64,000 nucleotides of DNA. It comes from Candidatus Competibacteraceae bacterium (GTDB lineage Bacteria > Pseudomonadota > Gammaproteobacteria > Competibacterales > Competibacteraceae). The position numbers were made by a program, and so were the translations under genes. Under the pieces are notes generated by a model, which was given only the letters and a program-made list of their open reading frames with translations, searched no databases and was not told the DNA's origin. The stretch covers positions 1 to 64,000 of the forward strand of contig RXIX01000003.1 of assembly GCA_003989075.1 (NCBI GenBank). Reading direction: 5' to 3'. Shown here one piece after another: positions 1,052 through 2,802 of this stretch. The stretch's first letter is position 1; every line of letters starts with the position of its first letter.

Positions 1052-1500
1052 ATCCACGTCACTGAACCGCCTGAACCAAGGCAAAACGAGCCGGTCCGGT
1101 GAAAAAACGCAAGGATGCGCGACAGCCCCACCGGCTTGAGTGAATGCGTAGAGCCTGGTCGCGTGCCAGCCCTGCCGATGATGGACACGGCTCCCGAAAC
1201 CGGCGGCTTTTAATCGATTCCCCGCGCCGGTTTTGCGGATTCCAATTGTGATCTTAGCGACAAAGCGGTCGTTTTGTCGCGCACAGACCACGACAAACCG
1301 CACAAATTACCGCACAACTTACTCATAAACTCTATCTTTTACAGTATGTTGTGATTTGTTACCGCCCGGCACAGCGTTTGCTGATAACTGAGGGCGGCCG
1401 ACTGTCGGCGGCGACGGAACCGCATCCGTCCTTGTAGTCTTGCGGTTTACCCGAATTGCGCGAAAAGCCCCGGCCTTACTTCGGCTTCGCTCAGTACAGG
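1052..1500. other. Gene-free stretch with REP-like repeat at its right end
   Basis: I see no supportable gene. Around 1315-1360 the sequence becomes AT-rich, unlike its surroundings, which may mark a promoter or the left boundary of the inserted element. At 1479-1500 lies a TTCGGCTTCGCTCAGTACAGG-type sequence related to the CTTCGACTGCGCTCAG repeat at 52888. The left end of the TnpB element probably lies here or just after it, but no target sequence or end could be fixed. Confidence 0.4.
1479..1500. repeat. Short REP-like repeat (TTCGnCTkCGCTCAG type)
   Basis: The sequence shares the core TTCG-CT-CGCTCAG-ACA with 52888-52909. It abuts the stop codon of the small RHH gene (TCA on the plus strand at 1501-1503), as its relatives abut or contain the ends of glycosyltransferase genes further right. 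Such dispersed palindromic repeats are common in proteobacterial genomes. Confidence 0.45.
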
Positions 1501-1674
1501 TCAGGGCGGGGATGGAGAGCGCGGCGAACGAAGTTCGCCTTCTTTTTGTGCCGCATAGTCAGAAAGCACTTTTTGGATCAGATTGGACAAATTGCGCCCG
1601 TCCAGTATAGCGAGTTTCCTCAGCCGTTCTTTCAGTTCCTTGTTGATTTTCATGTGCAAAATTTCGCTAGTCAT
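1501..1674 (-). CDS. Ribbon-helix-helix small DNA-binding protein
   Basis: 57 aa from the ATG at 1674 (MTSEILHMKINKEL); a start at 1653 is also possible and neither has a clear ribosome binding site. The pattern is a short beta-strand (ILHMKI), an amphipathic helix (KELKERLRKLAIL), a turn (DGRNLS) and a second helix (NLIQKVLSDYAAQ). This is the CopG/Arc/MetJ fold, which binds palindromic operators as a dimer. The last dozen residues are encoded by a hairpin and repeat edge and look non-native. It is transcribed away from tnpB with 37 bases between the ATGs, and two palindromes fill that gap, suggesting autoregulation and control of tnpB. Whether the gene belongs to the element or the host is not known. 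Confidence 0.65.
   Translation of the reverse strand: MTSEILHMKINKELKERLRKLAILDGRNLSNLIQKVLSDYAAQKEGELRSPRSPSPP
1523..1547 (+). repeat. Perfect hairpin with T tract
   Basis: GGCGAAC (1523-1529) and GTTCGCC (1533-1539) form a 7-bp stem with a GAA loop, followed by TTCTTTTT. It lies inside the 3' end of the RHH gene and points toward tnpB. It could be a terminator for plus-strand transcription entering the element, or the left-end subterminal hairpin of an IS200/IS605 element. Confidence 0.45.
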
Positions 1675-1682
1675 GTTGAATG

Positions 1683-1710
1683 CAATAATCTTTATTGTTA
1701 GTGTTAACAA
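1683..1710. promoter_or_regulatory. Two overlapping palindromes between RHH gene and tnpB
   Basis: CAATAA-TCT-TTATTG (1683-1697) and TTGTTA-GTGT-TAACAA (1695-1710) are both perfect inverted repeats, overlapping by three bases. They occupy nearly all of the gap between the divergent start codons and end one base before the tnpB ATG. The position suits an operator for the RHH protein overlapping both promoters. No clean -35/-10 pair is visible. Confidence 0.55.
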
Positions 1711-1711
1711 C

Positions 1712-2740
1712 ATGATACGCAGCTACCGCTATCGGCTCAAGGACTCCAGTTCCGCTTTGCAGCTCAACAGGTTGGCGCGGGCGTGCAACGTCGTCTGGAA
1801 CTTCTGCAACGAGTCGCAGGAACATGCGCTGCGCTGGCATCAGCGCTGGCCGACCTATCAGGACTTGTGCACATTAACCACCGGCAGCGGCAAGGAACTG
1901 GGCCTGCATTCGCAGACGGTTCAAGCGGTATGTGATCAATACGCCACGCGCCGCCAGCAATTCAAGAAACGTAAATTGCGCTGGCGTGGCAAGCGGTCGC
2001 CCGGCTGGATTCCTTTTAAAGCCTCTGGCGTTAAAGTGGTTGAAGATACCGTGCGGTATGCCGGTCACGTCTTTCGCTTCTGGAACAGTCGGGAACTATC
2101 CAGCCCGATTAAATGCGGCAGTTTCAGTCAGGATTCGCGGCAACGCTGGTACGTCAATTTTGTGGTTGAAGTGCCGGAAGCGGAAGCCACAACCGGAACC
2201 AGGCACATCGGCATTGACTTGGGTCTGAAGACGCTGGCGACCTGTTCGGATGGCCGCAAGATTGAAGCGCCGCGCTGGTATCGGCATCAGCAACGACGGA
2301 TTGCGGAACATCAGCGCAAGAAGCGTTCCCGGCAAGCGCGCAATCTGCACGCCAAGATTGCCAATCGGCGCTTGGATTTCCTGCACAAGGCATCTGATCG
2401 GCTCACCAAGGAATGTGAATTGATTGTCGTGGGCGATGTCGGAAGCGCCCGGCTGGCAAAAACGAAGATGGCCAAATCGGTCAATGACGCCGGTTGGGCC
2501 ACGTTTAAAACCCTGCTTTCCTATAAAGCGATTGCGCGGAAAGTGGTGTACAGAGAAGTCTCTGAGAGACTCTCAACCCAAACCTGTTCCGGTTGCGGTG
2601 CCATCGGCGGCCCAAAAGGTCGAGAAGGTCTTGGGGTCAGAGAATGGGTGTGCAGTGAATGCGGTGTGGTCCATGACCGTGACGTGAACGCGGCACTGAA
2701 CATTCTCCGTATGGGGCATCATACGCTGGCTCTGAAGTGA
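1712..2740 (+). CDS. tnpB: TnpB RNA-guided nuclease of IS200/IS605 type
   Basis: 342 aa from the ATG at 1712 (MIRSYRYRLK). An in-frame extension to 1583 is possible but would run through the RHH gene on the other strand and adds no family sequence. Family features: an N-terminal OrfB domain, RuvC-I with Asp169 (GIDLGLKTLA), a zinc ribbon with Cys292, Cys295, Cys314 and Cys317, and RuvC-III HDRD-x-N with Asp324. The usual RuvC-II glutamate motif (IxEDL) reads VVGDVG at 239-244, so Gly241 replaces Glu. Glu285, just before the zinc ribbon (VSERLSTQTC), is the likely substitute. TnpB uses a guide RNA from the element's right end to cut DNA and help retain the element. It is probably active because both aspartates are present. 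A repressor-like (TldR) role is less likely. Confidence 0.88.
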   Translation: MIRSYRYRLKDSSSALQLNRLARACNVVWNFCNESQEHALRWHQRWPTYQDLCTLTTGSGKELGLHSQTVQAVCDQYATRRQQFKKRKLRWRGKRSPGWIPFKASGVKVVEDTVRYAGHVFRFWNSRELSSPIKCGSFSQDSRQRWYVNFVVEVPEAEATTGTRHIGIDLGLKTLATCSDGRKIEAPRWYRHQQRRIAEHQRKKRSRQARNLHAKIANRRLDFLHKASDRLTKECELIVVGDVGSARLAKTKMAKSVNDAGWATFKTLLSYKAIARKVVYREVSERLSTQTCSGCGAIGGPKGREGLGVREWVCSECGVVHDRDVNAALNILRMGHHTLALK

Positions 2741-2802
2741 GTCAGGAATCCCCTCCCTTCAGAGCCTGCCCCCGCGTAGGCGGGGGGCGGGGAGGATGTC
2801 AA
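2700..2802 (+). ncRNA. Candidate TnpB guide RNA (omegaRNA) and right end
   Basis: The 3' end of tnpB runs into a structured segment. An outer CCTCCC (2752-2757) / GGGAGG (2790-2795) stem encloses an inner GCCCCCGC / GCGGGGGGC hairpin (2768-2788), followed by GATGTCAA. Known TnpB scaffold RNAs overlap the 3' end of tnpB and finish at the element end, with the guide read from flanking DNA. The guide would start at about 2803 (AGGTTTCCGAACGGCCAGTC), inside the patatin gene. The 5' boundary is nominal. Confidence 0.55.

What the first reader, a model, noticed from the sequence alone, without database searches (positions are those of the whole stretch)
1501..1710. RHH gene, twin palindromes and tnpB: a possible self-regulated TnpB module
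A 57-aa ribbon-helix-helix protein is divergent from tnpB. The 37-base gap is almost filled by two perfect, overlapping palindromes (CAATAAtctTTATTG, TTGTTAgtgtTAACAA), the second ending one base before the tnpB ATG. This suggests a dedicated repressor for a TnpB-only element, which normally has no partner gene.
Basis: partly seen in the sequence, partly recalled or inferred. Interest (0 to 1): 0.65.

Follow-up and report, generated by a model that had tools for sequence, protein, structure and literature searches.

The report
Gene-cutting transposon carrying its own repressor
A small jumping element that makes the RNA-guided DNA cutter TnpB also carries, where its transposase gene would normally sit, a tiny ribbon-helix-helix protein that most likely switches the cutter off; the same pairing was assembled several times in unrelated bacteria and phages.

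Summary
Observation confirmed: a 57-aa ribbon-helix-helix (RHH) gene (1674-1501, -) is divergent from tnpB (1712-2740, +). Two perfect palindromes fill the 37-base gap. Both genes lie inside one IS200/IS605-type element (1451-2802) with at least five copies in this genome. The nearest TnpB relatives (82-87% identical) carry a divergent tnpA in the slot that RHH occupies here, so RHH replaced tnpA. The pairing recurs. True homologues of the RHH (52-59% identical) lie divergent from tnpB in three further lineages on viral contigs. Other RHH genes are divergent from tnpB (three to four lineages) or directly upstream with overlapping stop/start codons (three lineages). A TnpB tree needs at least 8 changes of the RHH label. 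It is a promoter-like core (TTGNNN-17-TANNNT) in all four lineages, flanked in three of them by ATGTTG...CAACAT half-sites at fixed spacing. Best reading: the RHH dimer represses the tnpB promoter, and probably its own, in trans on all copies. Because guide RNA is cut from tnpB mRNA, this would silence nuclease and guide together. Binding and repression are inferred, not shown. The association is recurrent but a minority: about 5% of 157 tnpB loci.

The parts
1446..1450 (+). target / TAM-like TTTAC at the left junction
   Evidence: same TTTAC(CCGAATTGCG) at the left junction of copies on C70, C148, C144, C58, with unrelated flanks
1451..1548 (+). left end (LE): imperfect hairpin about 1467-1511 plus terminator-like stem GGCGAAC GAA GTTCGCC + T-run (1523-1545)
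   Evidence: shared by about 20 places in own genome with different cargo; terminator scan
1501..1674 (-). rhh, 57 aa ribbon-helix-helix protein; the last 12 residues (GELRSPRSPSPP) are encoded inside LE
1673..1678 (+). conserved half-site 1 ATGTTG (overlaps rhh start codon and the -35)
   Evidence: same place in L262, L268, L298
1676..1704 (+). putative tnpB promoter TTGAAT (1676-1681) - 17 - TAGTGT (1699-1704); would give a leaderless or nearly leaderless tnpB mRNA
   Evidence: the same TTGNNN-17-TANNNT register in all four lineages, 9/12 consensus in L262 and L298; in the window only 7/12 and not called by the scanner
1708..1713 (-). conserved inverted half-site CAACAT, 35 bp start-to-start from half-site 1
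   Evidence: identical spacing in window, L262, L268
1712..2740 (+). tnpB, 342 aa, RNA-guided endonuclease family; RuvC-II glutamate position reads GDV, with invariant E282/E285 downstream
   Evidence: NF040570 guided_TnpB E=6.7e-70, Pfam TNB/OrfB_IS605, alignment
2745..2802 (+). right end: GGAATCCCC..GGGGAGGATGTCAA hairpin, ending TCAA at 2799-2802; guide sequence starts at 2803
   Evidence: shared by C44 and C65 with flanks diverging right after TCAA; same end in L262, L268, L298, L078 and others

Best explanation
This is a tnpA-less IS200/IS605-type element in which an Arc/CopG-like RHH gene occupies the tnpA slot between the left end and tnpB. The RHH protein, as a dimer or tandem dimers, most likely binds short half-sites (ATGTTG/CAACAT) on and around the tnpB promoter in the shared intergenic region. 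There it represses tnpB, and probably its own gene, on every copy in the cell. Because TnpB cuts its guide RNA out of its own mRNA, silencing that one promoter would lower nuclease and guide together. This would limit self-damage as copies accumulate, with release when the element enters a cell lacking the repressor. Mobility would depend on a transposase acting in trans on the shared left and right ends. Shown: element anatomy, multicopy state, replacement of tnpA, recurrence of the pairing, cross-lineage conservation of intergenic DNA. Inferred: DNA binding, repression, trans action, induction on entry, trans mobilisation.
For: (1) RHH and tnpB are contiguous in three copies, and RHH plus LE appear in more, with sharp shared junctions. 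(2) The nearest TnpBs (G014, L073-L075; 82-87%) have tnpA at the same place. The tree nests the window in that tnpA clade (100%), and L262, a homologous RHH with tnpB, sits beside tnpA-bearing L083/L088. (3) The close RHH family is beside tnpB in L262, L298 and L268/L270/L301. (4) Other RHHs occur divergent (L137, L287; weaker L276, L110; G001 with a distant TnpB) or as an overlapping RHH>tnpB operon (L153, L078, L263; decayed L076). (5) Intergenic identity, ungapped, 22/40 with L268 and 21/40 with L262 (shuffle p about 0.001 each); L268-L262 27/40 (0 of 20000); a common TTGNNN-17-TANNNT register and fixed half-site spacing. (6) Third codon positions differ most between window and C64 RHH cores (15/13/25 of 38). 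(7) TnpB makes its guide from its own mRNA (PMC10278001).
Against: No binding or expression data. The window's promoter match is weak (7/12) and its second half-site is not conserved. Most tnpB loci of this clade have no RHH. The upstream versus downstream contrast is modest: strict HMM hits in 4 lineages versus 0 gives p=0.12, and Pfam-supported 8 versus 1 gives p=0.036. Copy C70 has a stop in the RHH tail, C59 a broken RHH, and C64 carries RHH without tnpB.
Confidence: 0.62

Rival explanations
1. Passenger: the LE-tnpB interval tolerates cargo. Short RHH genes from host or phage neighbours were captured by chance after tnpA loss and regulate only themselves or nothing.
For: Most tnpB loci lack RHH. 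C64 holds LE plus RHH without tnpB beside coaBC. The C-termini of several cargo ORFs simply read into LE. RHH tails are disrupted in C70 and C59.
Against: The same RHH family sits with distantly related tnpBs in the same orientation, with conserved promoter-like DNA. Recruits are repeatedly RHH regulators, not random genes, and three lineages show an overlapping stop/start with tnpB.
Confidence: 0.2
2. The RHH acts on transposition: it binds element ends or regulates a trans-acting tnpA, as a replacement for lost self-control of the transposase.
For: The left end is shared by about 20 places, including MITE-like elements and a tnpA fragment, and RHH sits in the tnpA slot.
Against: The conserved half-sites lie at the tnpB promoter. 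No ATGTTG/CAACAT pair was seen in LE or RE. The genome holds no full-length tnpA of this kind, only a partial Y1 hit on C66 and a more distant one on C147.
Confidence: 0.08
3. The RHH is a host-directed regulator or orphan antitoxin that the element exports to control host genes, in the manner of TnpB-derived regulators.
For: RHH proteins are commonly antitoxins or regulators; weak CcdA/RelB-like profile matches.
Against: No toxin gene beside it. Close homologues are found beside tnpB and not in host operons, C64 excepted.
Confidence: 0.1

Closest known systems
IS200/IS605 family, TnpB-only (IS1341-like) elements
   Same: LE and RE hairpins, TCAA right terminus, tnpB with guide starting just past RE, no tnpA
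   Different: an RHH gene lies between LE and tnpB in the tnpA slot
IS605-type elements with divergent tnpA and tnpB (nearest relatives G014, L073-L075)
   Same: 82-87% identical TnpB, same gene order and orientation, related right end
   Different: tnpA replaced by rhh
Arc / CopG / plasmid ORF56-like RHH repressors
   Same: beta-helix-helix size and sequence pattern; short half-sites on a promoter; usually autoregulated
   Different: carried by a TnpB element and paired with an RNA-guided nuclease; binding untested
TldR, TnpB-derived RNA-guided regulators (PMC13418256)
   Same: TnpB family and transcription control
   Different: there TnpB itself became the regulator; here a separate protein appears to regulate tnpB
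RptR repressor of restriction-modification islands (PMC12255303)
   Same: logic: a tiny linked repressor with short repeats over the promoter of a DNA-cutting system
   Different: RptR is an all-helical, non-RHH protein; unrelated

Membership tests
IS200/IS605 TnpB-only element | tnpB of the guided-endonuclease family | tested here: met
   NF040570 E=6.7e-70
IS200/IS605 TnpB-only element | defined LE/RE with subterminal hairpins, insertion after a short TTAC-like target, right end TCAA | tested here: met
   multicopy junctions
IS200/IS605 TnpB-only element | no tnpA within the element | tested here: met
   no Y1 ORF between LE and RE
IS200/IS605 TnpB-only element | mobilised by TnpA in trans | not testable with these tools
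   only one partial and one more distant Y1 hit in a draft genome
RHH (Arc/MetJ/CopG) DNA-binding protein | N-terminal strand followed by two helices of RHH spacing and sequence pattern | tested here: inconclusive
   two helices predicted, strand not resolved with 4 sequences; fold hits weak but mostly RHH; homologue L262 passes Pfam RHH_1
RHH (Arc/MetJ/CopG) DNA-binding protein | binds operator DNA as dimer or tetramer | not testable with these tools
   only conserved candidate half-sites
Type II toxin-antitoxin antitoxin | adjacent cognate toxin gene | tested here: not met
   the partner gene is tnpB; no toxin ORF between LE and RE
TldR (nuclease-dead TnpB regulators) | inactivated RuvC site | tested here: inconclusive
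   RuvC-II E is absent at the usual place (GDV) but D169, D322/D324 and E282/E285 are invariant across the clade, like the rearranged RuvC-II clades described in PMC10278001

The most novel reading that the evidence does not exclude
RHH-TnpB is a recurrent, convergently assembled regulated version of the guided-nuclease element. Loss of tnpA is repeatedly followed by gain of a small repressor in the same slot, divergent or as a translationally coupled operon, which sets nuclease and guide dosage in trans and allows a burst on entry into naive cells or phage genomes.
Probability: 0.4. Interest if true: 0.75.

Novelty: new variant of a known kind. Interest (0 to 1): 0.6.

Why it matters
How TnpB elements keep a self-made, self-targeted nuclease from harming their host as copies build up is open, and searches of the held literature found no dedicated repressor for tnpB. 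A small linked repressor with a defined candidate operator makes transcriptional control of an OMEGA nuclease testable with a gel shift and a reporter. It would also show that TnpB can persist without its own transposase under a different partner gene.

Tried and rejected
Single-sequence searches with the 57-aa RHH found nothing in 84,980 genome contig sets, plasmids, viral contigs, 59 relatives or a 399-genome phylum sample; the query was too short and divergent. The homologues surfaced only by collecting tnpB loci first and scanning their 5' sides. Profile searches of 369 and 399 genomes returned generic RHH genes with no tnpB beside the fetched loci. The 63-aa Polaromonas protein (L110) has relatives on Burkholderia plasmids away from tnpB, so it is a weak case. 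L276/L293 is uncertain, because in the near-identical L293 the RHH lies on the other side of tnpB. The RHH rows found in other members of the host family (L061-L066, L069, L071) are phage-like or generic regulators with no tnpB. Toxin-antitoxin reading rejected: no toxin ORF. Reading the palindromes as IS-end hairpins rejected: they are internal, and the ends are elsewhere.

Full report
Observation. Two perfect palindromes in a 37-mer of this composition occur in 0.3-1% of shuffles, and neither degenerate palindrome recurs in the 64 kb.

Element. tnpB is a bona fide guided-TnpB family member (NF040570, E=6.7e-70). Copies of the same DNA in the source genome end abruptly at the same two points. 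The left junction follows TTTAC (1446-1450); the right is ...GGGGAGGATGTCAA (2802), and flanks are unrelated beyond these points. The element is therefore 1451-2802 and holds rhh and tnpB. RHH and tnpB are contiguous in three copies (window, C70, C148). RHH plus LE are seen on C144 and C58 up to contig ends. C59 carries an 85% diverged copy whose RHH is frameshifted. C44 and C65 hold right halves; they may be the other halves of cut copies, so the safe count is five left junctions plus C59. C64 has LE plus a 56% identical RHH and no tnpB, its start overlapping the coaBC stop.

RHH replaced tnpA. The closest TnpBs elsewhere (87% in G014, 82-85% in L073-L075) have a Y1 tnpA divergent from tnpB at the RHH position. 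In a TnpB tree of 171 rows the window sits within that tnpA group (6 rows: 5 with tnpA, 1 RHH, support 100). L262, which carries a homologous RHH, sits next to tnpA-bearing L083/L088. The source genome shows only one partial and one more distant Y1 hit, but it is a 278-contig draft.

Is it really RHH? By itself the protein falls below Pfam's gathering score. PHROGs gives 'Arc-like repressor' at 2.5e-4. A four-sequence profile finds ORF56 (E=0.027) and, more weakly, other RHH chains in PDB. The AlphaFold2 model (pLDDT 78, strand not resolved) matches CopG, Arc and PutA RHH domains best, though with E-values above 1. L262's homologue (53% identical) passes RHH_1 and RHH_5 cut-offs.

Recurrence. 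I collected 80 tnpB loci from genome contigs and 80 from viral contigs and scanned 157 upstream and 155 downstream regions with an RHH profile. Upstream, tnpA is found in 31. RHH genes that are true homologues of the window's occur divergent from tnpB in L262 and L268/L270; a later scan added L298 (78% to L262) and L301, also divergent from tnpB. Other RHH genes: L137 (Allochromatium warmingii) and L287/L288 divergent, with L276 and L110 weaker; L153, L078 and L263 immediately upstream in the same direction, stop overlapping the tnpB start (L076 decayed). In the source organism's family, G001 has an RHH divergent from a distant (29% identical) TnpB, while related own-genome elements L165/L177 lack it. 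Downstream, only one weak case (L293) appears. Counting lineages, 4 vs 0 (strict) gives p=0.12 and 8 vs 1 (Pfam-supported) p=0.036, so enrichment is suggestive rather than proved. The RHH label needs at least 8 changes on the tree, so pairings arose or were lost repeatedly.

The operator question. Both are altered in C59, and palindrome 1 has no counterpart in other lineages. What is conserved between window, L268 and L262 is the intergenic DNA itself: 22/40 and 21/40 ungapped identities to the window (22 and 26 of 20000 shuffles reach this), 27/40 between L268 and L262 (0 of 20000). ATGTTG at the RHH start and CAACAT 35 bp on lie at the same spacing in all three. TGTTG 12 bp after the start of the first half-site is shared by L262, L268 and L298, not by the window. 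All four lineages carry TTGNNN-17-TANNNT in the same register (9/12 consensus in L262 and L298, 7/12 in the window, 6/12 in L268). In L298 a 10-bp-arm palindrome lies at the end of this promoter; in the L263 operon an 8-bp-arm palindrome spans the promoter of RHH-tnpB. This is the layout expected of a repressor that occludes the tnpB promoter, but the window's own promoter match is weak.

Selection. Between window and C64 RHH cores, differences fall 15/13/25 over codon positions 1/2/3, consistent with protein-level constraint. Recent copies are too similar to tell.

Mechanism. [quoted passage not shown] One repressed promoter would thus lower nuclease and guide at once, and a diffusible RHH would do so for all copies. 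This is inference; no binding, expression or transposition was tested.

Relation to known systems. It is a TnpB-only IS200/IS605 element by anatomy, with a partner gene that I did not find described: text searches for TnpB with ribbon-helix-helix, CopG or repressor returned nothing relevant. The library is open-access only, so absence is not proof. I therefore rate it a new variant of a known kind.

Noticed in passing
window 1451-1548; L041-L060: The left end is shared by about 20 places in the genome with different cargo: other tnpBs, a partial tnpA (C66), an IscB-like ORF (C7, L059, short 42-bp match), and 350-400 bp MITE-like elements with both ends and no gene (C13, C36, C38).
   Followed up: partly
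window 1501-1540; L059; L110; L137: Cargo genes of several elements end inside the left end, so their C-terminal peptide is encoded by the transposon end (GELRSPRSPSPP, AELRSARSASPA, TLRVPRS).
   Followed up: partly
window 2420-2560: TnpB lacks the usual RuvC-II glutamate (VVGDV); E282 and E285 are invariant in the whole clade, fitting the rearranged RuvC-II clades of TnpB.
   Followed up: partly
L153 1355-1490, L078 1279-1410, L263 1348-1495: RHH gene directly upstream of tnpB with stop/start overlap (ATGA or TAATG): an RHH>tnpB operon-like version of the same pairing.
   Followed up: partly
L025 1030-1236 (C64): Left end plus a 56% identical RHH, no tnpB, between coaBC and dut; RHH ATG overlaps the coaBC stop codon.
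   Followed up: partly
window 1523-1545: The left end holds a terminator-like stem and T-run facing transcription that enters from the left flank.
   Followed up: no
window 2762-2790: The window copy's right-end hairpin loop carries about 23 extra bases relative to C44 and C65.
   Followed up: no
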